Part shown: positions 9,232 to 51,806 of the stretch, in pieces
Layout: each line of letters opens with the position of its first letter
Numbering within the stretch: position 1 is the first letter of the stretch
NCBI RefSeq assembly: GCF_013348805.1
Contig: NZ_CP054690.1
Location: forward strand, 5,642,001-5,706,000
Reading direction: 5' to 3'
DNA length: 64,000 nucleotides
DNA from: Rhodococcus sp. W8901
Lineage (GTDB): Bacteria; Actinomycetota; Actinomycetes; Mycobacteriales; Mycobacteriaceae
The notes under the pieces: model-generated
What the model was told of the DNA's origin: nothing
The model's input: only the letters and a program-made list of their open reading frames with translations
Database searches by the model: none
Translations under genes and position numbers: made by a program

Positions 9232-9594
9232 ATGAGGCATCAGAAGCACGAACAGCGCAATCGGATGCTCGTAGCGGCCGCAGCGGTCGCGGCCGGGCTA
9301 CTCGGCGGTGCGATCACCGGATGCGACGACAACATCGACTCGAATCCTGGACTACCGACCACCAAGGACGAAACCGAAGAAACCGAAGAAACCGACCCCG
9401 AGGATTCGAGCGGACTGCAACAGACGAACTCCTTCGGCTACATCCCCGAACACGAGAGGACCCTCGAGACCGATCCGATCGGACCCGAGGGTGGCAATAT
9501 CGAGAACGACCCGTTCGAACTGGGTGGTGGCTCGAGCCTCCCCGGCGGCAGCCGACTGCCCGCCGAGGCGACACTCACCACACCCACCGGTTGA
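9232..9594 (+). CDS. Small predicted lipoprotein with GLQQTNSFGYIP motif
   Basis: A 120-residue protein of unrecognised family. The start ATG 9232 (MRHQKHEQ) has a gaaagg site 7 bp upstream; the ATG at 9226 is too close to that site. A basic n-region and a hydrophobic stretch (~residues 11-25) end in a lipobox ITGC, predicting a membrane-anchored lipoprotein. After an acidic Glu/Thr-rich spacer, the C-terminal half carries GLQQTNSFGYIPEHE, a Gly/Pro-rich part and SLPGGSRLPAEATLTTPTG. The next gene, 14 bp downstream, repeats the same architecture. Function is unknown. Confidence 0.7.
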   Translation: MRHQKHEQRNRMLVAAAAVAAGLLGGAITGCDDNIDSNPGLPTTKDETEETEETDPEDSSGLQQTNSFGYIPEHERTLETDPIGPEGGNIENDPFELGGGSSLPGGSRLPAEATLTTPTG

Positions 9595-9608: not shown

Positions 9609-9980
9609 ATGACAGGACAGGAAGGCCGACGGGAACGGTGGCGGCTCGTGGTCGCCGCAGCGGCCGTGTCGACGGCCCTGCTGGGCGCAGGCGCGATCAG
9701 CGTGCTCGCCACTACCGAGGACGCGAACCAATCCTTCCCCCAGATGACCTTCTCCCAGATGCCGCAGACGACGACCGAGGACACGGGGCTGCAACAGACC
9801 GATTCCTTCGGCTACATCCCGCAACACGAGACGACGCTGCCGACCAACGGCAACGGCCCGGGCGCGCCGGGGCCGTTCGGCAACGGCCCGTTCGACAATC
9901 CGGGTCCGCCGCTGCCGGGCGGCCCGGGACTGCCCGCGCACGCCACCGTCGCGCCGACGCTCACCTCACCCGCGGGATGA
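9609..9980 (+). CDS. Small predicted exported protein, tandem paralogue
   Basis: A 123-residue protein from ATG 9609, with gagggg 7 bp upstream. A basic n-region (GRRERWR) and hydrophobic segment ALLGAGAISVLA resemble a signal peptide or anchor, but no lipobox Cys is present, unlike its upstream neighbour. The C-terminal half matches the neighbour: GLQQTDSFGYIPQHE, a Gly/Pro/Asn-rich stretch, then LPGGPGLPAHATV. The pair looks like an old tandem duplication with divergent anchoring. Function is unknown. Confidence 0.7.
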   Translation: MTGQEGRRERWRLVVAAAAVSTALLGAGAISVLATTEDANQSFPQMTFSQMPQTTTEDTGLQQTDSFGYIPQHETTLPTNGNGPGAPGPFGNGPFDNPGPPLPGGPGLPAHATVAPTLTSPAG

Positions 9981-10002
9981 TCTTCGGTCTAACCTCGAGG
10001 GC

Positions 10003-10692
10003 ATGTCCACACCGCACCCGACAGCCCTGATCACCGGCGGTAGCCGCGGCCTCGGTGCCGCGATCGCCCGCGAACTGGCCCCCACGCACCAGCTGATCCT
10101 CGGTGGCCGCAGTGCCGAATCGCTCGAACCGATCGCGGGGGAGTTGGGCGCGGCCCCGTGGCCAGTGGACCTCACCGACTACGCCGCGGTGGCCGAAGCG
10201 GTCACCGACATCGACCGACTGGACGTCCTGGTGCACAACGCCGGCGTCGCGGACATCGGAACCATCGAGGAGACGTCGGTCGACACGTGGCACCGGACGT
10301 TCGAGGCCAACGTCGTCGCGGTCGCCGAGCTCACCCGGTTGCTGCTGCCGGCGCTACGCGCCGCGAACGGGCATGTCGTGCTGATCAATTCGGGCTCGGG
10401 ACTGCGCGCCAACGCGGGTTGGGGCGCGTACGCCGCCAGCAAGTTCGCGCTGCGCGCGTTCGGGGACGCGTTGCGACTCGAGGAGCCGACGCTGCGGGTC
10501 ACGTCGATCCACCCGGGGCGCATCGACACCGACATGCAGCGCGCGATCGTCGCCTCCGAGGGCGCCGAGTACGACGCCGGCAAGTTCCTCACCCCGGAAA
10601 CGGTGGCGGGTGCGGTCCGGAACGCCGTCGAGACGCCCCGGGACGCGCACCCCACCGAGATCGTGCTGCGACCGATGCCGAGTCAGCACTGA
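10003..10692 (+). CDS. SDR family oxidoreductase with replaced 3' end
   Basis: A 229-residue short-chain dehydrogenase. TALITGGSRGLGAAIA (~residues 7-22) binds NAD(P), NAG appears in VHNAGVAD, and the catalytic set is INSGSG then YAASKFA. The start ATG matches the family. Its last codons, from AGAVRN to EIVLRP, are encoded by a 68-bp sequence repeated exactly at 17225-17292. This copy ends MPSQH and the downstream copy ends VSR, so the present C-terminus probably came with the inserted module. The substrate is unknown. Confidence 0.88.
   Translation: MSTPHPTALITGGSRGLGAAIARELAPTHQLILGGRSAESLEPIAGELGAAPWPVDLTDYAAVAEAVTDIDRLDVLVHNAGVADIGTIEETSVDTWHRTFEANVVAVAELTRLLLPALRAANGHVVLINSGSGLRANAGWGAYAASKFALRAFGDALRLEEPTLRVTSIHPGRIDTDMQRAIVASEGAEYDAGKFLTPETVAGAVRNAVETPRDAHPTEIVLRPMPSQH
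10606..10673. repeat. 68-bp direct repeat, left copy (3' end of SDR gene)
   Basis: This segment inside the SDR coding sequence is identical base for base with 17225-17292, in the same orientation. The breakpoints are sharp: both flanks diverge at once. Together the copies bracket 6.55 kb of catabolic genes and resemble an attachment-site duplication or a homologous recombination joint. Confidence 0.95.
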
Positions 10693-10735
10693 CTGGCCGC
10701 TCCCGCACCTGCCTCGGATATTCACGACCACTGGA

Positions 10736-12337
10736 TCATGCGGTGAACTGCTCGCGCAGATCCCTCTTCTTGAACTTGCCGGTAGCCGTTCTGGGAATGG
10801 TGGACACGAACTCGAACCGCTCGGGTAGCTGCCACCGCGCAAACTCACCCGACAGGTGCTCACGGAGCTGCTCCGGGTCCGCGGTCTGGCCGTCCCGGAG
10901 CACGAGCACCGCCAACGGACGCTCACCCCACCGCGGATCGGGCACGGCGATCACCGCGGCCTCCGCCACCGACGGGTGTGCCATGAGGTGGTTTTCGAGA
11001 TCGACCGAGGAGATCCACTCGCCACCGGACTTGACCAGGTCCTTGGAGCGGTCACAGATCCGGATGCAGCCGCGGTGGTCGATGCGGACGATGTCTCCGG
11101 TGCGGAACCAGCCGTCAGCCGTGAAACTGTCTGCGCCCGAACCATTGTGGTAGGAAGCCGCCACCCAGGGTCCCCGAACCTCCAGCTCACCCATGGCGAC
11201 GTCATCCCACTCGATGAATCCGTCGTCCTCGTTCCGCGCTCGGATGTCGAAGAACGGCATCGCGACGCCCTGCCTGGCCCGGAACGCATACTGCTCGTCG
11301 GCCGCAGTTTCCCGCAGATCCACCGGGAGGCGGCTGACGGTACCGACCGGCGCGGTCTCGGTCATTCCCCACGCCTGGACGACGGTCAGACCGTGACGGT
11401 CATACCCCTCCAGCAGGCTGCGCGGCGCCGCCGCTCCACCGACGATCAACCGGTCGAGATGACGCAGATCCCAACGATGCGGTTCGAAGTCGAGTGCGTC
11501 GAGCATCGCCATCCACACCGTCGGCACCCCCGCAGTCATGGTGACCTTCTCGGCCTCGATCAGGTCGAGCACACTGACCGGGTCCAGCTTCGGTCCGGGT
11601 AGAACGAGCCGCGCGCCGAGCAGCGCCGCTGCGTACGGCAGACCCCACGCGTTGACGTGGAACATCGGCACCACCGGCAGCAGCGTGTCCTGCACCGAGA
11701 CGCCCAGAGCGTCGGGCAGTGCCGCGGCCATCGAATGAAGCACCAGCGCCCGGTGCGAGTACACGACGCCCTTCGGTCGACCGGTGGTGCCGGACGTGTA
11801 ACACATCGCGCCGGCTTGGCGTTCGTCGAGAACAGGCCACTGCATCGGTTCGGCCTCATCGATCAGGCTCTCGTAGTCGAGCATTCCTGCTGGTGCCGCA
11901 CCGCCATGGGAGACGACGATGACATGGTCGAACTGGTGCGTGAACCGGAACCCGTCGAACACCTCGAGCAGGGACTCGTCGACCACGATCACCCGGTCCT
12001 GCGCATCCCCGACGATGAAGGCCAGCTCGTCGGAATGCAGGCGTGGGTTGAGTGTGTGGACTACCGCCCCCATCGCCGGGACCGCGAAGTACATCTCGAG
12101 GTGCTCCGCTTGATTCCACAACAGCGTCGCCACCCGGTCACCGTCCCCGATACCGAGACCGGCCAGCGCGGTGGCAAGCCGCCGCGCCCGCCGCGCACAC
12201 GCCCCGAGAGTGGTCCGGGCAATGCTGCCGTCGGGGCGACGAGAAACGACGTCCTTTCCACTGTGGAAACGCTCGGCGCGCTCGACCACAGCGGTCAGCG
12301 ACAACGGGTAGTCATCCATGGTCAAGCCATTGATCAC
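10736..12337 (-). CDS. Acyl-CoA synthetase (AMP-forming, long/medium-chain fatty-acid-CoA ligase type)
   Basis: A 533-residue adenylate-forming enzyme that activates a carboxylic acid to its CoA thioester. The P-loop-like YTSGTTGRPKGV (~residues 180-191), the WGMTET motif (~319), the hinge region WFRTGDIVRID and the C-terminal catalytic Lys in TATGKFKKRDL are all visible. GTG 12337 has aggag 6 bp upstream. It is the last gene of the minus-strand MFS-SDR-BKACE-ligase set. In this context it may activate the acid released by or feeding the BKACE step; the exact substrate is not apparent. Confidence 0.9.
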   Translation of the reverse strand: MINGLTMDDYPLSLTAVVERAERFHSGKDVVSRRPDGSIARTTLGACARRARRLATALAGLGIGDGDRVATLLWNQAEHLEMYFAVPAMGAVVHTLNPRLHSDELAFIVGDAQDRVIVVDESLLEVFDGFRFTHQFDHVIVVSHGGAAPAGMLDYESLIDEAEPMQWPVLDERQAGAMCYTSGTTGRPKGVVYSHRALVLHSMAAALPDALGVSVQDTLLPVVPMFHVNAWGLPYAAALLGARLVLPGPKLDPVSVLDLIEAEKVTMTAGVPTVWMAMLDALDFEPHRWDLRHLDRLIVGGAAAPRSLLEGYDRHGLTVVQAWGMTETAPVGTVSRLPVDLRETAADEQYAFRARQGVAMPFFDIRARNEDDGFIEWDDVAMGELEVRGPWVAASYHNGSGADSFTADGWFRTGDIVRIDHRGCIRICDRSKDLVKSGGEWISSVDLENHLMAHPSVAEAAVIAVPDPRWGERPLAVLVLRDGQTADPEQLREHLSGEFARWQLPERFEFVSTIPRTATGKFKKRDLREQFTA

Positions 12338-12404
12338 GTAAAACTCCTAGATCGGGGATGGGCATTACTCGACGGCCGTAGATCCGGCACTGATCACGGC
12401 AGGG

Positions 12405-12433
12405 CCGGGTGTCCGGAGGAAACACCCGGACAC
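12405..12433 (-). terminator. Overlapping alternative hairpins between BKACE and ligase genes
   Basis: Two mutually exclusive 8-bp stems share sequence: CCGGGTGT (12405-12412) with ACACCCGG (12422-12429), and GTGTCCGG (12409-12416) with CCGGACAC (12426-12433). The element lies in the 142-bp gap downstream of the BKACE stop. It may be a partial terminator or attenuator that lowers ligase expression. Confidence 0.4.
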
Positions 12434-12479
12434 GGGGCACGAGTCGGTTCCGTGCCCCGCTGTGCAACAAGCCGGTGTG

Positions 12480-13532
12480 CTAGGCGTGGTGGGTGAATCC
12501 GACCTGCCCCGGGCGACGGTTCGGCGCGTAGCCGAGCTTGGCGAGGGTCTCGTCGGCGTCCGCGTAGGTGGTGCCGATCTTGTAGATGTCGCGGGCGTCC
12601 TTGCCGGTGGCAACCTCCCGTCCGAGTTCACCGGCGATGCGCACCAACTGTTGGATCTGCTGAACCGAGGTCATCTTCTCGCCCTTGCGGCCCCAGATGG
12701 TGTCCTCGTTGCCGCAGCGGGTGTGCAGGCCCATCGCGATCGCCATCGTGTTGACGGGCAGCACGCTGCGCATGAGGGACTCCAGGGTCAGGGCCGCTCC
12801 GTCCGGGACGCGCTGGATGAAGTTCATGATGTTGTACGGGTTCGGGCCCTCCATGCCGCCACCGATGCCGGTCCAGGTCACGTTCAGCGGGCCGGTGTAG
12901 ACCCCGCGACGGATGAGCCGCTCGACGCTCTCGAGGCCGGTGATGCCGGTCAGCGCGAACAGGGGCTGGATGCCGGCGGCCTGTAGGCGACGCAGGTGCT
13001 CCTCAACCCAGGCCGGTCCGGCCGGGATCGTCATCTCCCGGTACGTCTCCTGCAGTTCCGGACGCGCCAGGGATGTGCCCGCGATGTCGTCCGCGGTCAA
13101 CAGCTCCGCGATGTTCATCTGGCTGGTGTTGATCGCGATCGTGACCTGGTCCGGCTTGGGGTCGAGCTCGGCGAGCATGTGCCGGGTGTCATCGGAGAGC
13201 CACTTCGCCTCGGCGCCTTCACCTTCCGGCGCGAACGAAATCGATCCGCCGACCTGCAAGACCATCTCGGGAACCGCTTCGCGGAGCCGTCCGAGGAGTT
13301 CGTTGAACTTCGAGAGCCGCTTTGAGCCCTTGCCGTCGAGTTCACGAACGTGGATGTGCAGTACGGACGCGCCGGCCTCGTAGCAGTCCACCGCCTGCTG
13401 GACGTGCTCATCCATCGTCAACGGCAGATCCTCGCGGAAGTCGTCCGGCTCCCACTCGGGACCGTACGGCGCCGCCGTGATGACCAGCTTCTCCTGATTT
13501 TCGGGGAAGAGTGCGTCGTCATGGAAATGCAT
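12480..13532 (-). CDS. Beta-keto acid cleavage enzyme (BKACE, DUF849)
   Basis: A 350-residue TIM-barrel enzyme. Characterised family members condense a beta-keto acid with acetyl-CoA and release acetoacetate plus a new acyl-CoA, using Zn. Visible features: VITAAPYGPEWEP near the N-terminus, HIHVRELDGKGS (~60-72) with Zn-binding His residues, QVGGSI, PLNVTWTGIGGGMEG, and GLHTRCGNEDTIWGRKGEKMTS towards the end. The substrate-defining residues cannot be read with confidence, so 3-keto-5-aminohexanoate should not be assumed. ATG 13532 is followed by MHFHDDALFP. An SDR gene directly upstream could supply the keto acid. Confidence 0.88.
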   Translation of the reverse strand: MHFHDDALFPENQEKLVITAAPYGPEWEPDDFREDLPLTMDEHVQQAVDCYEAGASVLHIHVRELDGKGSKRLSKFNELLGRLREAVPEMVLQVGGSISFAPEGEGAEAKWLSDDTRHMLAELDPKPDQVTIAINTSQMNIAELLTADDIAGTSLARPELQETYREMTIPAGPAWVEEHLRRLQAAGIQPLFALTGITGLESVERLIRRGVYTGPLNVTWTGIGGGMEGPNPYNIMNFIQRVPDGAALTLESLMRSVLPVNTMAIAMGLHTRCGNEDTIWGRKGEKMTSVQQIQQLVRIAGELGREVATGKDARDIYKIGTTYADADETLAKLGYAPNRRPGQVGFTHHA

Positions 13533-13607
13533 GGTGGTGCTCCTGTCGGAAGTATTGGAAAGTGTTGCCGAGTAAGGGTGTTCGATGAAACCGAGAGTCC
13601 GCGGCGA

Positions 13608-14435
13608 TCAGATGACAGCGCCGCCGTTAGGACTGATGACCTGACCGACGAGATAGTGCGTCTCGCCGGCGAGGTAGACGGCAAGAGAGGCGTACTCCTC
13701 GGGAGTGCCGAGCCGGCCCACGGGAATAATCTGGTACAGGTTGCGCTTCTGCTCTTCGGTGGCGTTGTCGAGGTACGCCTGGAACGGCGGCGTCAAGACT
13801 CCTCCGCAGGCGATGGCGTTGACGTAGATACCCGCGCCCGCGACATCGAGGGCGACGGTCTTGGTCAGGCTCACGACTGCAGCCTTGGCGGCCGAGTAGC
13901 CGGGGCTGTGCGTGCTCGCGGTAGAGGTGCCGGCTATCGAGGCGATATTGATGATGCGGCCGTAACCCTGAGGCTCCATCAACTTCAATGCCTCACGGGT
14001 GCAGTAGAACACGCCGTGGACGTTGACGTCCCACCACTTGAGCCAGTCCTCGTCGGTGAGGCTGCTGGTGATGCCCATGGACTGGCGCTCCATCGGGGTG
14101 GTCACGTAGGCGTAGTGCCGGGCGCGCCGGACCTCGTCGGCGGGCAGGTTCGGCACTCGCGCAGCGTTGTTGACCAGGATGTGGACGGTTCCGAACTGCT
14201 CGACGGCCCGGGCGAACATCTCGACCACCTGCGCCTTGGACGAGACGTCGCAGCGCAGCGCCAAGCACTTGCGCCCCAGCGCCTCGACCTCGGCGGAGAC
14301 TTCCGCCAGCTTGTCCTCTTGAAGGTCACACAGGACGAGATCCGCGCCCTCTCGAGCCATGGCGAGCGCAATCGCCCTGCCCAGACCCTGCGCCGCTCCG
14401 GTGACCACGGCGACCTTGTCGAGTAGCTGCTGCAT
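13608..14435 (-). CDS. SDR family oxidoreductase
   Basis: A 275-residue classical SDR. VAVVTGAAQGLGRAIA (~residues 8-23) binds the dinucleotide, and the Asp in VLCDLQED (~37) suggests NAD preference. NNAA is the NNAG variant. The catalytic residues are in NIASIAG then YSAAKAA. The protein has an extra stretch, about 30 residues after NNAA (VPNLPADEV through TTPMERQSM), that lengthens the substrate loop. ATG 14435 has a gggag site upstream; longer open frame before it is shadow. It probably oxidises a hydroxy acid to the keto acid used by the BKACE enzyme. Confidence 0.87.
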   Translation of the reverse strand: MQQLLDKVAVVTGAAQGLGRAIALAMAREGADLVLCDLQEDKLAEVSAEVEALGRKCLALRCDVSSKAQVVEMFARAVEQFGTVHILVNNAARVPNLPADEVRRARHYAYVTTPMERQSMGITSSLTDEDWLKWWDVNVHGVFYCTREALKLMEPQGYGRIINIASIAGTSTASTHSPGYSAAKAAVVSLTKTVALDVAGAGIYVNAIACGGVLTPPFQAYLDNATEEQKRNLYQIIPVGRLGTPEEYASLAVYLAGETHYLVGQVISPNGGAVI

Positions 14436-14515
14436 TTCTCTGATCTCCCTCGATGAATGGAATGACAGGGCCGTCACGACGCTCAGACGGCCGACGGAAT
14501 CGGATGAGCGGGGAT

Positions 14516-15874
14516 CTATCCCGGGGACACGAGCGTGTCCGTGCCGACGGACGATGCCTCGCCGGAGGCCTTCGACTCCACCAAGGCAAGCTGGCGTAGG
14601 CCGGCCGGGTAGAGCTTCATGCCGAGGCCCAGGACCACGATGGACACGACGGATGCAAGTGGGACCCACTGCAACGCACCGAGCAGACCCAGCCGATCGG
14701 ACAGCAGTCCGACGACGAACGGCCCGAGGGCCAGCCCGAAGACGTTGTTCGCGAGTACGCCCACGCCGAGGGCCGAGGCTCGGATCGACGGGTGGGACAG
14801 GCTGGCGACGACCGCCGTCGTGGCACCGGAGAATCCGGAGCAGAAGAACGCCCCGACCCCGATCAACACCATCTGCACGGGCCCGTTCGCGAGCTGGAAG
14901 CCGACCATCAGGGACGCCATCGCGATGCCGGCGAACGCGATCGCTGCACTCCACCGGCGTTCGGGTCGCCGGCGACCGAACCGGTCGGCAGCGACGCCAC
15001 AGAGCACCGTTCCGGCGCCGATCAACAGTACGAAGACCGATGCCGCCAACCCGGCATCCGTGGCCGCCATGTCGTGGTAGCGGTTGAAGTAGCTGGGAAG
15101 CCAGGCGAGCAGCACACCCGAGACGAAGAACTGGATTCCAGCACCGACGTATGCACAGGTCAACGAGGCGTTCGTGAGCAGGCTCGAAATCGGGGCACGT
15201 CCATACCCGGAGGCGGGGGCCCCTGAGATCGGCCGGTCGGCGGCATGACGCGCCAGCCGCTGCTCGTTGACGAGGACCCGGAACAGGATGATCAGACACA
15301 GACCGAAGGCCGCCATGACCAGGAAGGCCGCACGCCAACCGAGCCGATCCGCGAGCACGCCGCCGAGCGCGACACCGACGACCGAGCCGAAGAACGCCGC
15401 ACCGAGGATGGCGCCGCTGAGCGAGGCATGCAGGCGCGGGGCAAAGACTCCCAGCATGACGGCCATGCCCACACTCGCGTAGGCGGCCTCACCGAACCCG
15501 AGCAGGAATCGTGCGCCGAGCAGCTGGGAGTAGTTTCCCGCCGCGGCGCACAGGATGGTCGCGACACTCCACAGCACTGCCATGAGGACCACACTGCGGA
15601 CGCGACCCCAACGGTCGGCGAGCAGTGACATCGGCAGCGCCAACACCCCGACCATCAGGGCTACGACGCTGGTCAGGGCCGCAAGTTGCGAATCCGACAG
15701 ATCCCACTCCGCCTTCAGCACGGGGAATACGGAACTGAGTACCTGCCGGGACATGTAGTCCGACATCATCAGACCGAAGATCAGGGTGAATACCACCCAC
15801 GGGAAAACCTTCGAGTGGGCGCCGGTGCCGAGGACCTCTCGGGATGGCGTGGATTCCTGGGGCTCCAGTTCCAT
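14516..15874 (-). CDS. MFS transporter
   Basis: A 452-residue major facilitator protein with about 12 predicted membrane segments. The MFS loop 2-3 signature is present as LLADRWGRVRS (~residues 85-95), repeated in the second half as VAADRFGRRRP. ATG 15874 (MELEPQES) has aggag 6 bp upstream; the in-frame extension to 16099 has no membrane or family character. As first gene of the minus-strand module, it probably imports the organic acid degraded by the enzymes downstream. Confidence 0.87.
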   Translation of the reverse strand: MELEPQESTPSREVLGTGAHSKVFPWVVFTLIFGLMMSDYMSRQVLSSVFPVLKAEWDLSDSQLAALTSVVALMVGVLALPMSLLADRWGRVRSVVLMAVLWSVATILCAAAGNYSQLLGARFLLGFGEAAYASVGMAVMLGVFAPRLHASLSGAILGAAFFGSVVGVALGGVLADRLGWRAAFLVMAAFGLCLIILFRVLVNEQRLARHAADRPISGAPASGYGRAPISSLLTNASLTCAYVGAGIQFFVSGVLLAWLPSYFNRYHDMAATDAGLAASVFVLLIGAGTVLCGVAADRFGRRRPERRWSAAIAFAGIAMASLMVGFQLANGPVQMVLIGVGAFFCSGFSGATTAVVASLSHPSIRASALGVGVLANNVFGLALGPFVVGLLSDRLGLLGALQWVPLASVVSIVVLGLGMKLYPAGLRQLALVESKASGEASSVGTDTLVSPG

Positions 15875-16185
15875 GCGTGCTCCTGTTCTTGAAGGGCGCG
15901 TTGAGGCGACGCGTCTCGGATGTGGCCGGTTCGGAAAGCTCGCTGCGAACCGGAACGAGGCTGTGGTTGCTCGACGTACGTGTCGGCACGAACGGCAGCG
16001 AATCGAAGGCTGTGCGTCAGGCCCTGCCGGGCGTTTTGCACGCTGGGGATCGCCCAGCGAAAGCGACCGCGCTGACCGATTCGACAACTGCGGTGACACA
16101 GGTCACGCTATACGGATTGGGGCGAGAACACTTGTCCCGTTGGGACGAATTCTTTGGCAGCTTGGGACAGGGGCTGGGGTAGTCG
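15875..16185. promoter_or_regulatory. Divergent control region between MFS operon and AraC regulator
   Basis: A 311-bp gap between divergent genes, with no gene-like frame in keeping with its neighbours. Near the regulator lies GTCCC-gtt-GGGAC (16136-16148 region), followed 20 bp later by another TTGGGACA element. These repeated GGGAC half-sites may be binding sites for the AraC protein. Base composition is slightly less G+C-rich than the genes. No convincing -10/-35 pair was fixed. Confidence 0.45.
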
Positions 16186-17199
16186 ATGACAGTGGTGAAG
16201 GTGCGGAGTTCGGCGCTGACCGGGTACGTCGAGTTGACGCAGTCTCTCGGCGCGGACCCAGATCCGTTCATGCGTGCCGTGGGCATCGACCCGACGGCCT
16301 TGGCCACGCCGAATTCATGGCTCCCTGCGGAGCGCGTCGACGAATTGTTGGAGCGAACCGCTCTGGCAACGTCCTGTGTGGACTTCGCGGTCAAGATGGC
16401 GGACGGCAGGGGGGTGTCGATACTCGGAGCAGTGGGTTTGGCCGCCAGGGAAGAGCCGGACGTCCGTAGCGCGATCGCGCTCATACTGCGCCACATGCGG
16501 GTACACAACGAGGCGATTCAGATTCTGCTCGTCGAGTTGAACGGCCTTGTCTCACTGCGGATCGAGCCCGCACCCGGGATGACACTCGGGCGCCAGTCCA
16601 TCGAACTGGTCATCGCCTCGTTGGCGCGGATACTCAGCGCGTTTCTCCCGGACGGCTGGCGACCACTGTCCACCTGCTTCGTCCACGAAGCACCGACCAC
16701 GCTCGATGTCCATCACCGCGCCTTCGGGGCGGGCGTCGCATTCGAACAGGACTTCAACGGTTTCGTGCTCTACTCGAGCGATCTGGACTCCGTCAATCCG
16801 TTGTCGGACCCGATGTTCCAGCCCTACGCAAGGCAGTACCTGGACCTGCTCGCGCCGCCGGAAGATGCCTCCGCCGTCGGACGGGTACGCGAGATGATCG
16901 AGGCGCTTCTGCCGGGCGGAAGGTGCACTGCCGCCCGGATCGCGCGCAGTCTCGGGATGGACCGGCGAACCCTGCACAGACACCTGTCACAGGCGGGCGA
17001 AAACTACTCGTCCGTGGTCGATTCCGTGCGCTCAGATCTCGCGCGACGGTACATCACACGTGGCGACCGTAGCCTCACCGACATAGCGGGTGAACTAGGG
17101 TTCTCGGACTTGAGTGCCTTCTCGCGTTGGTTCCGTCGACAGTTCGGCACGAGTCCAACGAAATGGGCTGCACACCAGCACGAAACCAAGTCGGCCTGA
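16186..17199 (+). CDS. AraC-family transcriptional regulator (OruR/ArgR-like, Arabinose_bd domain)
   Basis: A 337-residue regulator. Residues ~20-210 match the N-terminal effector domain found in the OruR/VirS group of AraC proteins (LGADPDPFMRAVGIDPTAL near the start). The C-terminal ~100 residues hold two helix-turn-helix motifs: AARIARSLGMDRRTLHRHLSQAG and LTDIAGELGFSDLSAFSRWFRRQFGTSP, the classic AraC signature. It is divergent from the MFS-SDR-BKACE-ligase genes and is probably their activator. A 6-bp hairpin (CTGAGA/TCTCAG, 17196-17214) overlaps its stop and may terminate it. Confidence 0.9.
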   Translation: MTVVKVRSSALTGYVELTQSLGADPDPFMRAVGIDPTALATPNSWLPAERVDELLERTALATSCVDFAVKMADGRGVSILGAVGLAAREEPDVRSAIALILRHMRVHNEAIQILLVELNGLVSLRIEPAPGMTLGRQSIELVIASLARILSAFLPDGWRPLSTCFVHEAPTTLDVHHRAFGAGVAFEQDFNGFVLYSSDLDSVNPLSDPMFQPYARQYLDLLAPPEDASAVGRVREMIEALLPGGRCTAARIARSLGMDRRTLHRHLSQAGENYSSVVDSVRSDLARRYITRGDRSLTDIAGELGFSDLSAFSRWFRRQFGTSPTKWAAHQHETKSA

Positions 17200-17224
17200 G
17201 AGGCGGACTCTCAGCACCCCAGTC

Positions 17225-17305
17225 GCGGGTGCGGTCCGGAACGCCGTCGAGACGCCCCGGGACGCGCACCCCACCGAGATCGTGCTGCGACCCGTATCGC
17301 GGTGA
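17225..17305 (+). pseudogene. Orphan 3' end of the SDR gene (right copy of 68-bp direct repeat)
   Basis: Bases 17225-17292 are identical to 10606-10673 and keep the same reading frame. The frame continues beyond the repeat with four codons and a stop (ends LRPVSR). This is a 26-codon tail without a gene. It stops 15 bp before the convergent hutD stop, so joining it to the SDR gene at 10003 would recreate a compact convergent pair. It therefore looks like the original SDR 3' end, displaced by the inserted module. Confidence 0.85.
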
Positions 17306-17320
17306 GGGCGGCCGTCACCG

Positions 17321-17893
17321 TCAGGGGCGGCCGAGTGGCGTGATGGTGAGGATCGCGCAGGGATCGGTCATCTCGAAGGCGTCGACACACCCGGCCGGGA
17401 GCAGCACGGCCGCCTCCGTCACCGGATCGACGAGAACGACCAGCGCAGCGGGATCGGCGGCCCGGGGCGGCTCCCCGAACCGCATCGTCGCCGTGGCCGC
17501 ACCACGCCGCACCATGACGTTCAACGCCCGAGTGGGCGCCTCCACCCGGCACCCCGGCGCCCACTCGCCCGGAAATGCGATCGTCTGCAGCGGCGCGACG
17601 ACGTGGCGCACGACGCCGGTCGCGGCGTCCGGGGCGTCCGGGGCGGCCCCCGGCCCGAACGGCGCTCCGGTCAGTTCGATCGGGACCGCACCGATCGGCA
17701 TGAACAGTCGGTCGAATCCGTCGATCACCGAGAAGGTCGACGACGTCGGTTCGTCGGCGATGCTCACCCGCCACAGATCGGTCTCGGCGACCACCTGCGT
17801 GGTGCCCTGACCGTTGCGCCAGCGCACCGACACCCGGTCGTCGCGAGTGGTGCGACGCGCCGGCGCCCCGAGCGAGTACGGTCCGTCGTTCAC
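17321..17893 (-). CDS. hutD: HutD/Ves family cupin-like protein
   Basis: A 190-residue protein of the HutD family: VSVRWRNGQGTTQVVAE (~residues 21-37), WRVSIADEPTSSTFSVIDGFDRLFMPIGA and the late LNVMVRRG segment are typical. HutD is a double-stranded beta-barrel protein associated with histidine utilisation and thought to set an upper limit on its activity. No other hut gene is in the window, but a HutC-like palindrome lies 41 bp upstream, which supports the assignment. The start is ATG 17893. Confidence 0.88.
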   Translation of the reverse strand: MNDGPYSLGAPARRTTRDDRVSVRWRNGQGTTQVVAETDLWRVSIADEPTSSTFSVIDGFDRLFMPIGAVPIELTGAPFGPGAAPDAPDAATGVVRHVVAPLQTIAFPGEWAPGCRVEAPTRALNVMVRRGAATATMRFGEPPRAADPAALVVLVDPVTEAAVLLPAGCVDAFEMTDPCAILTITPLGRP

Positions 17894-17933
17894 AGTTCCT
17901 CCGGTGACATCTCACGCCATTACTTGTCCAGTC

Positions 17934-17945
17934 TTGTATATACAA
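17934..17945. promoter_or_regulatory. HutC-like operator upstream of hutD
   Basis: TTGTATATACAA is a perfect 12-bp palindrome, extended left by a C and a further TTGT half-site (cTTGTccagtcTTGT). It resembles the TTGTATRTACAA-type site bound by the GntR-family histidine utilisation repressor HutC in other bacteria. AT-rich sequence stands out sharply in this G+C-rich region. Confidence 0.6.
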
Positions 17946-18075
17946 CCCGGAGGCGCCGCGCGCGCCCGGGGGAGCGGCACCCGCGTCGGCCCGTACGAAC
18001 GACTGGGGTGTGGTCCGGCGTCACCTGGACACCGGGCCACACCCCACCGACAGCGGAGCGGCGTTGGCCGTCTCG

Positions 18076-18447
18076 TCAGCTGACGATCATGTCCTCCTGC
18101 GCCCAGTACGCGCGGGTGCTGGTGATCTTGGCGTCGTCGTCGAACGTCATGACGTCGATGGGCTCCATGACGTAGGTGGTGTCGCCGACCTTCGAGACGG
18201 TGCGGAAGTGGAAGGCGGCGCTGTTGCCCGCGACGCGAACCGTCAGCAGTTCCGCGGTCTGGTCCATCGCCTCGATCGCCTTGAAGAAGGCACGGATCTC
18301 CTCGACGCCCCGCTTGGGCTCGGTGCCGACCGGATCCTCGACAGTGGCACCCTCGGCGAACAGGGCGGCGACGGCGTCGGCGCTCTTGCTCTCGAGTGCC
18401 TTCATGTACGAGGCGACGGTGTGCTTGATGTCTTCTGCGGTTGCCAT
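18076..18447 (-). CDS. NTF2-like / SnoaL-type protein (steroid delta-isomerase-like)
   Basis: A 123-residue protein with the cone-shaped NTF2 fold pattern: HTVASYMKALESKSADAVAALFAEGATVEDPVGTEP (~residues 9-44), GVEEIRAFF and a C-terminal MEPIDVMTFDDDAKITSTRAYW. This resembles the steroid delta-isomerase-like branch (Asp in VEDPVG, tail DVMTFD). It could be an isomerase or a small ligand-binding protein. ATG 18447 (MATAEDIKH) has aaagg about 10 bp upstream; the long frame beyond it is shadow. It is divergent from the lipase gene. Confidence 0.82.
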   Translation of the reverse strand: MATAEDIKHTVASYMKALESKSADAVAALFAEGATVEDPVGTEPKRGVEEIRAFFKAIEAMDQTAELLTVRVAGNSAAFHFRTVSKVGDTTYVMEPIDVMTFDDDAKITSTRAYWAQEDMIVS

Positions 18448-18610
18448 GGTCGCTGAACCTTTGCTCGTGGAACGAATTTCAGGGTTTTCTCGGCGGCGAG
18501 CGTATCCCGGCTCACACACCCGACACATCGCTCGGTCCCGCCCACCGGACACTCCCGACATAGCGCCGAAGCCGCACGAGCCGCAACAATCCGGTGCTAG
18601 CGTCCCGCGC

Positions 18611-20122
18611 ATGCCAATCCAGTACGGGGGTTTCTGGGGCCGGATACTCGTCGCTGCACTCGCGGTGGGTGTCGTGGTCGGAGGTGGTACCGCAGGCACA
18701 GCCGCGGCCCAATCGAGCGGCAGTGCGCTGCCGAACACCAGCATCGGCGGAGTGGGATCGACCGGCAGTGCGGCCGGACAGGGATTCATCGGACCCGGGT
18801 CGCTCACCGACGGCACCGGCTCGGACGGCACCGGGTCCAACGGCACGACGCCGATCACCGGCTCGTGGGGGACGGGGTCTCTCGCCCGGTCCGCGTTCGG
18901 TTCCTGGATACCGGGTTCGGTGGACTCGTCGGTGTCGCCACCGGATCTGGCGCCCCCGCAGCTCGATACGCTGCACCAGGAGATGCAGCCCTCGCCGATC
19001 GGCGATCCGTTCTTCGACGAGTACCCGCCCGGCCTGCCCGGCATGACGAACGGCCAGGTCATCGAGACCCGCGACGTCACGCCGGTCGCCCGTCTACTCC
19101 CACTCGGGCCGGTGCGCGAGGTCCGGCAGATCAAGGTGAAGTCCACCGACGCGCTGGGTGCGCCGTCGTTCGCTACCGCGACCCTCGTCATCCCCGCCGC
19201 GGACTGGACCGGTCCCGGCCCGCGTCCGATCCTGGTGAACAACGTGCCGATCAACGGCCTCGGGCGGGCCTGCACCCCCTCCCACACCCTCGCCAACGGG
19301 ATCACACCATCGACCAACCCCTTCGACTTCCTCCGACCCGTCACGACGAAGGCCGAGGAACGCGGCTACGCGGTTCTCATCCCTGACCATGAGGGCCCGC
19401 AGATGGCGTACGCCGAACCGTACGTCGCCGGGCACGCCGTCCTCGACACCATCCGCGGCATGCGGAACGAGTACCCGGCGGAGTTCGGCAGCAGCAAACT
19501 CGCGATGATGGGCTACTCCGGCGGAGCGATCGCGACGCACGGCGCGGTCAAGCTGATCGATTCGTACGCACCCGAACTGGCCCCCGACATCGTCGGTGCC
19601 GCGTTCGGCGGCGTGCCCGCCGACTTCGAGATGCTCGGGCGCACCATGAACGGCAACCTCGCCAGTGGACTCTTCCTCGCGGCGGTGCTGGGGATCTCGC
19701 GGGAGCGGACCCAGATCCTGCCCCTGATCAACAGTCTGGGGCAGCGGCTGGGCATCTCCACCATCAAGGACATGTGCGTGAGCAACCTCGGCGTGATCGG
19801 CCTCCTGAACGCACCCGTCGAGGCACTCGCGAACATCAAGGATGCGCTGAATTCCCCTGTCGCGCACGACATCTACAACATCACGAAGATGGCGGGCATC
19901 AAGTCCGGTACCCCGCTGTACATCTACAACGGCGGGCAGGACTGGTGGATCCCCGCCCTCGGTGCCCGCAACCTGTACGACGAGCAGTGCGGACTGGGCG
20001 TCAATGCCGTGTACCGGCAGGTGCCCGGTGAGCACCTGCTCGGCGAGGCCATCGGCAACCCCGGAGCGTTCGACTGGGTCGACGCCCTCTTCCAGGGACA
20101 GCCCGCACCCGACGAGTGCTGA
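18611..20122 (+). CDS. Secreted lipase (LIP family, triacylglycerol lipase)
   Basis: A 503-residue protein. A Sec signal (WGRILVAALAVGVVVGGG) ends near AAA-QSS (~residue 34), followed by a ~90-residue Gly/Ser/Thr-rich linker. The catalytic domain has the nucleophile elbow GYSGGA (Ser ~residue 300), an acid candidate in GGQDWWIP (~440) and a His in PGEHLLGE (~478). This is the secretory lipase family of mycolic-acid bacteria, which hydrolyses lipid esters outside the cell. ATG 18611 precedes the signal directly. A strong hairpin follows. Confidence 0.9.
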   Translation: MPIQYGGFWGRILVAALAVGVVVGGGTAGTAAAQSSGSALPNTSIGGVGSTGSAAGQGFIGPGSLTDGTGSDGTGSNGTTPITGSWGTGSLARSAFGSWIPGSVDSSVSPPDLAPPQLDTLHQEMQPSPIGDPFFDEYPPGLPGMTNGQVIETRDVTPVARLLPLGPVREVRQIKVKSTDALGAPSFATATLVIPAADWTGPGPRPILVNNVPINGLGRACTPSHTLANGITPSTNPFDFLRPVTTKAEERGYAVLIPDHEGPQMAYAEPYVAGHAVLDTIRGMRNEYPAEFGSSKLAMMGYSGGAIATHGAVKLIDSYAPELAPDIVGAAFGGVPADFEMLGRTMNGNLASGLFLAAVLGISRERTQILPLINSLGQRLGISTIKDMCVSNLGVIGLLNAPVEALANIKDALNSPVAHDIYNITKMAGIKSGTPLYIYNGGQDWWIPALGARNLYDEQCGLGVNAVYRQVPGEHLLGEAIGNPGAFDWVDALFQGQPAPDEC

Positions 20123-20133
20123 GCGCCATCCAT

Positions 20134-20196
20134 CGCGTTTTGCGCACTTATCGCTGAATCCCGGAGGGTTCAGGAGCGATAAGTGCGCAAAACGCG
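20134..20196. terminator. Bidirectional terminator between lipase and leuS
   Basis: A perfect 22-bp stem (cgcgttttgcgcacttatcg plus ct, paired with its complement at 20175-20196) around a 19-nt loop. It fills most of the 80-bp gap between the two convergent stops. The stem contains TTTT/AAAA runs, so each direction has a small U tract within the stem. Confidence 0.85.
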
Positions 20197-20202
20197 GGTG
20201 GG

Positions 20203-34351: not shown

Positions 34352-35884
34352 ATGCTCGCCGTCACGGTCGCGGGCCTCGCGCTCACCACCGCCCCCGCAC
34401 TCGCGGAACCCGCGACGGGGCCCACCAACTCGTGCGGCGAGGCGGGATTCGATCCGTCGGCGCCGGACCCGGAACCGCCGCCGCCGACGTCCCCGCCCGT
34501 CATCGGGGTCCCGCTGCCGTACCCGCAGTTCGTCCCCGTCCCACTACCCGATCCCGCCCCCGACCGGACCCGGGTGGCGCAGGATCCCCTGCCGGCGGAC
34601 CCCTGCCAGGACCCGTGCCCCGACCTCACCGATGCGACCGACGATCCCGGCGGGCCGGACACCGCACCCGGTTCGCCGGGTTCGGGATCGGGCTCCAGTT
34701 CGGGCTCGAGTTCGGGATCGGATTCGGGATCCGGTTCGGGTCCGGGATCCGGTTCGATCACCCTGCCGCGCATCCAGATCCAGCCGCGGCCCGAGACCGT
34801 CCCGATTCCGGTGCCGGGCGGCGACCCGGGTCCGGATCCGCAGCCCGCACCGCCGCTCGACATCGGCACGATCGACCCCGGGCCCGTCACCGCACCGCTC
34901 GGCACCCCGGCTGTGGGGGCGGTGAGTCTGGTGTCGCAGGTGACCGGGCCCGGATCCGAGAACCGCACCGACAAGCGGTGGCAGGTCGACGGCACCGACC
35001 TGGGCATCACGTGGGAGAGCCGTCCGGGCGAGGTCGCGGTGGCGTTCGGCGACACGTTCGGCGCGGACTGGCAGCCGCCCGGCGCGAACGGCCGGGACTG
35101 GCGCAGCAGCGTGCTCGGGCACAGCACCGACACCGATCTGTCCGACGGCATGACGATCGACAGCATGGTGCAGGACAGTCGCTGTCACGCCGCCGAGATC
35201 ATCGACGCCCGGCACATCGCGAACTGGGAGACCACCGCCATCCCCACGTCGGGCTTCGCGATCGGCGCCCGCCAGTACCTGAGCTACATGTCGGTGCGCC
35301 GCTGGGGCGAGCCCGGCATGTGGGTGACGAACCACGGCGGCATCGCGTACTCCGACGACAACGGTCAGACGTGGACCAAGGATCAATATGCCCAGTGGGA
35401 CAATATCTTCGGACAGGGCCTGTTCCAGGTGACCGCGATGGTTCCGCAGGGCGACGACGTGTACATGTTCGGCACCCCCAACGGCCGGATGGGCACGATC
35501 GGCCTCGCCCGCGTCCCCGCCGGCGAGCTACTCGACACCAGTGCGTACCAGTACTGGGTCGACGGCAACTGGGTCCCGGTGGTGGAACACCTCGCCACAT
35601 CGCTCGTCTCGGGCCCCGCGGGCGAGCTGTCCGTGCGCTACGACGCCGATCGGCAGCGGTGGCTCATGAGCTACCTCGACCAGGTCGACGGACGAATCCT
35701 CCTGCGGCAGTCGTCGAGTCCGCAGGGCACCTGGTCCGACGGCGCGACCCTCGTCGACAGTACCGAGTACCCGAAGACCTACGGCGGTTTCATGCACCCC
35801 TGGTCCACACCCGACGAGCTGTACTTCACGATGTCGGAATGGGACAGCTACAACGTCTACCTCATGCGGGCGAAGTTGAACTGA
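34352..35884 (+). CDS. Secreted DUF4185-domain protein with Pro- and Gly/Ser-rich linkers
   Basis: At least 510 residues. The ATG at 34352 leaves a signal peptide without positive charges (MLAVTVAGLALTTAPALA). The in-frame codons just before it encode IIRRLTS, an ideal n-region, but with no ATG/GTG/TTG; an aggggtga site sits directly upstream of ATC codons at 34331/34334. Residues ~20-180 are Pro-rich, with a Gly/Ser repeat. The C-terminal ~320 residues are the DUF4185 beta-propeller-like domain (VAFGDTFGADW, MWVTNHGGIAYSDDNGQTW, TYGGFMHPWS). Extracellular; the family's function is unknown. Confidence 0.8.
   Translation: MLAVTVAGLALTTAPALAEPATGPTNSCGEAGFDPSAPDPEPPPPTSPPVIGVPLPYPQFVPVPLPDPAPDRTRVAQDPLPADPCQDPCPDLTDATDDPGGPDTAPGSPGSGSGSSSGSSSGSDSGSGSGPGSGSITLPRIQIQPRPETVPIPVPGGDPGPDPQPAPPLDIGTIDPGPVTAPLGTPAVGAVSLVSQVTGPGSENRTDKRWQVDGTDLGITWESRPGEVAVAFGDTFGADWQPPGANGRDWRSSVLGHSTDTDLSDGMTIDSMVQDSRCHAAEIIDARHIANWETTAIPTSGFAIGARQYLSYMSVRRWGEPGMWVTNHGGIAYSDDNGQTWTKDQYAQWDNIFGQGLFQVTAMVPQGDDVYMFGTPNGRMGTIGLARVPAGELLDTSAYQYWVDGNWVPVVEHLATSLVSGPAGELSVRYDADRQRWLMSYLDQVDGRILLRQSSSPQGTWSDGATLVDSTEYPKTYGGFMHPWSTPDELYFTMSEWDSYNVYLMRAKLN
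34669..34760 (+). repeat. Gly/Ser-coding hexamer repeat in DUF4185 gene
   Basis: Imperfect 6-bp units of the type ggttcg/ggatcg/ggctcc encode an alternating Gly-Ser linker of about 30 residues. Such tracts are prone to length change and would vary the distance between the membrane side and the DUF4185 domain. Confidence 0.75.

Positions 35885-47496: not shown

Positions 47497-51806
<4,310 letters not shown>

What the first reader, a model, noticed from the sequence alone, without database searches (positions are those of the whole stretch)
10606..17305. A 6.6-kb catabolic module is bracketed by a 68-bp exact direct repeat of an SDR gene's 3' end
Bases 10606-10673 and 17225-17292 are identical over 68 bp with abrupt divergence on both sides. 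The left copy is the C-terminal coding end of an SDR gene. The right copy is an orphan tail that stays in frame, ends VSR-stop, and finishes 15 bp from the convergent hutD stop. Deleting one repeat plus the intervening DNA would restore a complete SDR gene ending VSR, facing hutD. The interval holds a self-contained pathway with its own regulator. This looks like integration into, or recombination at, a gene 3' end, but with a protein gene as target and no integrase in the module.
Basis: seen in the sequence. Interest (0 to 1): 0.78.

Follow-up and report, generated by a model that had tools for sequence, protein, structure and literature searches.

The report
Module inserted at a gene's end
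A five-gene set for breaking down an unknown compound has been spliced into the end of an ordinary enzyme gene in a bacterium related to Prescottella, giving that gene a new tail and leaving its old tail stranded 6.6 kb away, most likely through ordinary recombination without a dedicated integrase.

Summary
Confirmed: 10606-10673 and 17225-17292 are identical over 68 bp (71 nt with one mismatch), far beyond chance. Seven of 13 have one SDR ending RPxxR* directly facing hutD, and the window's joined empty site aligns end to end with all seven; six of 13 lack hutD. None has the window's arrangement. One congener (P. agglutinans) carries the same module between hutD and the SnoaL-like gene, without the repeat.

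Correction: the copies are not one duplicated end. They lead into two different SDR ends: left MPSQH* (like IPRQQ* of the hutD-less near relative P. defluvii Ca11), right VSR* (like hutD-bearing species). A truncated SDR tail joined to the same module also lies on a 775-kb contig of another genus, so the unit can carry an SDR tail with it.

Best explanation: a recent homology-driven insertion (single crossover of a recircularised fragment, or one-sided recombination plus end-joining), not site-specific integration. Direction and exact mechanism are inferred; no genome of the same species was available. A well-resolved example of a known kind of event; interest modest.

The parts
10003..10692 (+). 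SDR oxidoreductase gene, now ending RPMPSQH*
   Evidence: PF00106, NCBIfam NF006073 above cut-off; match in 14 of 14 genus genomes
10606..10673 (+). left copy of the 68-bp repeat, coding part of the SDR 3' end
   Evidence: 68 of 68 in G001, 55-66 of 68 in the 12 other congeners, ungapped
10674..10692 (+). SDR tail resembling that of hutD-less relatives (MPSQH*)
   Evidence: bases 10674-10697 match the G001 tail (IPRQQ*) at 20 of 24
10693..10735 (.). 43-nt spacer between SDR stop and ligase stop, shared with the truncated-tail copy on G245:C2
   Evidence: alignment
10736..12337 (-). AMP-binding acyl-CoA ligase of the module
   Evidence: PF00501 + PF13193; NCBIfam best hit NF005426 below cut-off, NF004837 (general subfamily) above it
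12480..13532 (-). beta-keto acid cleavage enzyme (BKACE)
   Evidence: PF05853, E=1.9e-60
13608..14435 (-). second SDR dehydrogenase of the module (start codon inferred; 13608-14432 was scanned)
   Evidence: PF13561/PF00106
14516..16099 (-). MFS transporter (start uncertain)
   Evidence: PF07690
16186..17199 (+). AraC-type regulator
   Evidence: PF12625 + PF12833; 94% in G003, 90-92% in three genomes of genus g21
17200..17224 (.). remnant of the module's own right flank, and the right junction
   Evidence: similarity to G003 runs 13 nt past the AraC stop by blastn, perhaps about 26 in a forced global alignment
17225..17292 (+). right copy of the 68-bp repeat: orphan, displaced SDR tail
17293..17305 (+). 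end of the displaced tail, VSR*, of the hutD-bearing type
   Evidence: compare RPVPR* (G011) and RPVAR* (G007)
17321..17893 (-). hutD, convergent neighbour of the old SDR end
   Evidence: PF05962; found in 8 of 14 genus genomes
17894..18078 (.). hutD to SnoaL-like spacer with a 19-nt inverted repeat (18004-18046), module-free in the window
   Evidence: the module sits at this place in G003, where neither remaining side shows an inverted repeat
18079..18465 (-). SnoaL-like gene, right-hand neighbour
   Evidence: PF12680

Best explanation
The window's ancestor had the arrangement seen in hutD-bearing relatives: SDR ending RPVSR*, directly facing hutD. A DNA fragment from a close relative with the other SDR end, running from inside the SDR 3' end (...MPSQH*) through the ligase-BKACE-SDR-MFS-AraC module, entered and recombined in the shared SDR 3' end. 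Either the fragment had closed into a circle, its AraC flank end-joined to a truncated SDR tail, and went in by one crossover inside the 68 bp; or it paired at the SDR end only and its far end was joined with little homology. Both give SDR - new tail - module - orphan old tail - hutD. SHOWN: the repeat, the two kinds of SDR end, the empty sites in relatives, a module with a truncated SDR tail elsewhere, no PF00589 integrase in the window. INFERRED: direction of transfer, circle versus one-sided, the donor.
For: Empty site in 7 of 13 congeners; joined flanks align 972/972 bases with all 7, and only to 371-380 in the 6 hutD-less ones. The window's hutD groups with G010/G013/G011, as a native gene would, though that fork is weak (67/74). 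The left tail resembles hutD-less G001 (20 of 24 bases), the right tail hutD-bearing species. G245:C2, in another genus, holds the same module preceded by a 5'-truncated SDR tail and the same spacer. The orphan copy has 0 of 68 changes, while the SDR body differs from G001 at 33 of 123 four-fold sites; an unselected copy as old as that split would be expected to carry about 11 changes, P about 1e-5, so the event is young unless conversion erased changes. The right junction shows little shared sequence. The genome has Ku. Precedent: in E. coli conjugation a PCR product for a gene-end duplication was found in 56 of 60 clones; 14 sequenced had 109-950 bp, read by the authors as single crossovers of truncated circular molecules (PMC3240628, passages).
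Against: No strain of the same species was available, so neither donor nor empty site was seen within the species. G001, nearest over the SDR (90%, fork 89/81) and over 40-44 kb, lacks hutD and has an MPSQH-like end, which also fits a hutD-less ancestor (rival 1). G001 is not nearest everywhere: leuS is nearest to G013 by identity, and in a second control locus G001 is 92% over one part but 80% over another. HutD-bearing congeners differ from the repeat by 2 to 10 of 68 bases, so perfect identity of the two copies needs a donor of the same clade, or conversion. No circle was observed.
Confidence: 0.6

Rival explanations
1. Reverse order: the native chromosome was hutD-less with SDR(MPSQH)-module, and a strain with SDR(VSR)-hutD donated the stretch starting at 17225 (orphan tail, hutD, perhaps part of the SnoaL-like gene).
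For: G001 is hutD-less with a like SDR end. G004 and G012, also hutD-less, have an end that is likewise longer by two codons (RPIPRRK*). At 18100-18249 the window is nearer to G013 (95%) than to G001 (89%), though at 18250-18399 G001 has 92% and G013 91%.
Against: The window's hutD groups with three related species like a native gene, weakly supported, and no sampled hutD is closer than 89%. The donated end would have to match the resident 68 bp exactly, while sampled hutD-bearing species have 2-10 mismatches.
Confidence: 0.22
2. Site-specific integration at the SDR 3' end by a recombinase acting in trans, with the 68 bp as attachment core and the element restoring the gene end.
For: Anatomy as in elements that rebuild a gene end. 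The truncated tail on G245:C2 begins within 4-11 bases of the point where the right copy begins. Twelve PF00589 matches exist elsewhere in the genome.
Against: No integrase domain in the five module proteins and no PF00589 match in the window. The G245 boundary is a 7-bp microhomology with a repeat of that contig. The module has other flanks in G003, G033, G114, G139 and G191.
Confidence: 0.07
3. Ancient state: the common ancestor with G001 already had the window's arrangement, and G001 deleted the module, orphan tail and hutD.
For: Needs one insertion and one deletion. The G001 join (TGACT|AGCTGACG) is compatible with such a deletion, read by eye (sequences).
Against: The orphan copy would then have stayed unchanged over 68 bp where about 11 changes are expected, P about 1e-5, unless conversion keeps it.
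Confidence: 0.08
4. Rearrangement of the P. agglutinans order (SDR-hutD-module-SnoaL) by tandem duplication and loss.
For: The same module, 86% alike, lies one gene away in G003.
Against: The window's hutD-SnoaL spacer keeps a 19-nt inverted repeat that neither side of the module in G003 shows, and I see no module remnant in it.
Confidence: 0.03

Closest known systems
Homology-facilitated illegitimate recombination (HFIR), and single crossover of truncated circular molecules (PMC3240628, passages seen)
   Same: Homology at one end only and a junction with little or no homology at the other; in E. coli most clones carried a partial duplication of the homologous gene end.
   Different: Natural 6.6-kb module and a 68-bp repeat, no experiment; the two copies end in different alleles. 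HFIR proper usually deletes resident DNA, which is not seen here.
Displacement of effector-immunity modules in Vibrio T6SS clusters with orphaned 3' genes (PMC5361080, abstract and passages seen)
   Same: An incoming module anchors in a conserved region and leaves the old 3' part downstream as an orphan; the authors saw no evidence for an integrase.
   Different: Here the anchor is an SDR gene and the cargo looks catabolic; only a short tail is orphaned.
Genomic islands that integrate at gene 3' ends and rebuild the gene (recalled)
   Same: Gene end restored by the incoming DNA, old end displaced, direct repeat left.
   Different: No integrase found, no evidence of a specific crossover site, other flanks elsewhere.
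Illegitimate integration and an excised circle in Rhodococcus jostii RHA1 (PMC12169178, abstract and passages seen)
   Same: Related genus; non-specific insertion of foreign DNA and a circular chromosomal piece without typical island features.
   Different: Seen after antibiotic selection, circle of 75-80 kb; no gene-end repeat described in what I saw.

Membership tests
HFIR or single-crossover (homology-driven) insertion | homology to the resident locus at one end of the incoming DNA | tested here: met
   SDR 3' end on both sides, 68/68
HFIR or single-crossover (homology-driven) insertion | other junction without extended homology | tested here: met
   module flank to SDR tail at 17224: upstream of 17225 the two sides share only scattered bases; the module flank before insertion is not known
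HFIR or single-crossover (homology-driven) insertion | empty site in relatives | tested here: met
   7 of 13 congeners; none of the same species
HFIR or single-crossover (homology-driven) insertion | donor molecule or circle | not testable with these tools
   no reads or strains of the species
Integrase-borne genomic island at a gene 3' end | integrase gene in the element | tested here: not met
   no such domain in the five module proteins; none of 12 PF00589 matches lies in the window
Integrase-borne genomic island at a gene 3' end | same attachment site used by independent copies | tested here: inconclusive
   G245 boundary 4-11 bases away but with a 7-bp microhomology; five other copies have other flanks, read by eye
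Integrase-borne genomic island at a gene 3' end | direct repeat with the gene end rebuilt by the element | tested here: met
   that the left end is the incoming one is inferred
Insertion sequence / target-site duplication | simple duplication of one target sequence | tested here: not met
   bases after the copies belong to two different SDR ends
Insertion sequence / target-site duplication | transposase in the element | tested here: not met
   no such domain in the five module proteins; other open frames of the interval were not scanned

The most novel reading that the evidence does not exclude
A catabolic module that travels without its own recombinase by carrying a short 3' piece of a conserved host gene as a homology key. 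The truncated SDR tail joined to the module, in this chromosome and on a 775-kb contig of another genus, would be a portable homology arm that aims the unit at the SDR end of Prescottella chromosomes and repairs the gene on entry.
Probability: 0.1. Interest if true: 0.6.

Novelty: new member of a known kind. Interest (0 to 1): 0.36.

Why it matters
It is a clear natural footprint of how a catabolic gene set can enter a conserved chromosomal spot with no integrase of its own in sight, keep the target gene intact, and leave a roughly dateable orphan. If the SDR tail serves as a portable homology arm, it would show a way for accessory pathways to be aimed at a core-gene end by homology alone.

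Tried and rejected
Plain tandem duplication or target-site duplication: rejected, because the bases directly after the 68 bp belong to two different SDR ends. Descent from the P. agglutinans order: disfavoured. RNA or tRNA target: no Rfam hit at gathering threshold in 9900-18600; the only tRNA call in the window is at 34666. A precise shared boundary between the window and G245: looked exact at first, then weakened when the G245 flank at C2:289654 showed a 7-bp microhomology. Two independent insertions on G245:C2: rejected, since A and B share flanks and are a 2.7-kb duplication at 96%. Tail plus module in further genomes: in a sample of 401 family genomes 34 matched the 197-base junction query, and only G000 and G245 span the junction, but only two candidates per genome were scored; 2 of 28 genomes of genus g23 matched, only G245 with the tail; 3 of 6 of genus g21 have the module end, none with the tail. 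Plasmids: the 6.7-kb query met 287 of 72,556 records, 0 covering 80%; the 211-base junction query met 2, at 75-76%, over the SDR side. Papers: Rhodococcus equi with hutD 0; gene-end island terms 0; Prescottella with genomic island and integration 3, listing only, none opened. So I did not find this locus described, within those searches.
Full report
CHECK. The repeat is real: 10606-10673 equals 17225-17292, and the match extends to 71 nt with one mismatch. The frame, the VSR stop and the 15-bp gap to the hutD stop are as described. The genome (5.71 Mb, one contig) gave no third match at E <= 0.001. Direct pairs with a 30-base exact match 0.5-25 kb apart are few: one in the window, one in the stretch 1.0-1.4 Mb (both copies inside one open frame of 2885 aa) and five at 3.0-3.4 Mb.

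THE MODULE. It holds an AMP-binding ligase, a BKACE (PF05853), an SDR, an MFS transporter and an AraC-type regulator. No family hit fixes the substrate: of the NCBIfam hits shown for these five proteins, only a general ligase subfamily passes its cut-off. A BKACE, an SDR, a transporter and an AraC regulator also occur together in a deoxyribonate cluster of Paraburkholderia bryophila (PMC6365646, passages), so a 3-hydroxy acid is a fair guess. That is inference only.

RELATIVES IN THE GENUS. All 14 genus genomes held have the SDR; 8 of 14 have hutD. I read the SDR-to-leuS stretch in the 13 others. Seven have SDR directly facing hutD (G002, G003, G007, G009, G010, G011, G013); six lack hutD (G001, G004, G005, G006, G008, G012). 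The joined empty site of the window aligns over 972 of 972 bases with the seven, and only to 371-380 with the six. Only G003 (P. agglutinans) has the same module nearby, 86% alike, but between hutD and the SnoaL-like gene. In G003 no inverted repeat is left on either side of the module, while the window's hutD-SnoaL spacer keeps one of 19 nt. G002 and G009 have 85%-like SDR2 and 73%-like AraC genes together at another place. Other BKACE genes of the genus are 67-85% relatives at other places.

TWO SDR ENDS. After the 68 bp the left copy continues with 24 bases of which 20 match G001. The right copy continues CGTATCGCGGTGA, like G011 and G007. So the copies run into two alleles of the gene end, not one duplicated end. 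G001 (P. defluvii Ca11) is nearest over the SDR (90%, fork 89/81) and over 40-44 kb (90% against 81-84% in the long alignments of the others; three of them have 90-91% in a separate conserved piece of about 1 kb). It is not nearest in leuS, and a second control locus is mixed, 92% over one part and 80% over another.

AGE. The orphan copy has no change in 68 bases. The SDR body differs from G001 at 33 of 123 four-fold sites, so an unselected copy as old as that split should carry about 11 changes (P about 1e-5; rough, assumes neutrality and no conversion). The 68-bp stretch is itself conserved in the genus (55 to 68 of 68 across the 13), so identity between copies from one clade is not surprising.

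THE MODULE ELSEWHERE. AraC relatives at 90-92% occur in three genomes of another genus, g21; the module there has no SDR tail beside it. In g23, G245 carries a full copy on its main contig and several copies or pieces on a 775-kb contig, and G191 has a full one. On G245:C2 the module is preceded by a truncated SDR tail (66 bp at 91%) and the same 43-nt spacer as in the window. The body of that copy is over 90% like G191 in 18 of 22 bins, and nearer to the window in 3 of 22, so tail and body may have different histories. The truncated tail starts at a 7-bp microhomology (window 10610-10616) with a repeat of that contig, 4-11 bases from where the window's right copy starts. This may point to a shared unit or be chance. 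The second tail copy, C2:202262, is a duplication of the same locus. No tail was seen beside the module in G003, G033, G114, G139 or G191.

MECHANISM. At the right junction the module's flank gives way to the SDR tail with little shared sequence. The genome has Ku and no PF00589 match inside the window. This fits homology at one end and end-joining at the other, or one crossover of a recircularised, truncated fragment. The latter was the authors' reading for 56 of 60 clones in E. coli conjugation (PMC3240628, passages). Rhodococcus integrates foreign DNA illegitimately and can release a circle (PMC12169178, passages). I put 0.6 on homology-driven insertion into a native SDR(VSR)-hutD chromosome and 0.22 on the reverse order.

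RESULTS AGAINST MY READING. G001 is hutD-less. At 18100-18249 the window is nearer to G013 than to G001. The hutD and leuS trees are poorly supported. No genome of the same species was available. All of this leaves the direction open.

VERDICT. A good, largely explained natural example of a known kind of recombination, with one unusual twist: the module can travel with a piece of the target gene.

Noticed in passing
window 10693-20200; loci L138-L150: The interval between the SDR and leuS varies in content across the genus: hutD, the SnoaL-like gene and inserts of several kb come and go.
   Followed up: partly
L180, L214, L224, L225 (G245): One genome of genus g23 carries several copies or pieces of the BKACE module on its main and its 775-kb contig, one a segmental duplication.
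   Followed up: partly
window 17934-17945: TTGTATATACAA palindrome upstream of hutD, kept with small changes in the six hutD-bearing congeners printed; it looks like a HutC-type operator (recalled, not tested).
   Followed up: no
window 9412-9471 and 9786-9845: 60-nt direct repeat at 82% upstream of the SDR, in the frame of putative small proteins.
   Followed up: no
window 47583-48038: Repeat family with 24-nt period, apparently coding and rich in proline and glutamine (not translated).
   Followed up: no
window 34666-34755: ARAGORN reports a tRNA-like gene with an unassigned two-base anticodon.
   Followed up: no
G000:C1:3244943-3271488 (L262, L263): A stretch with five direct pairs of 30-573 bp, 4.5-19 kb apart.
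   Followed up: no
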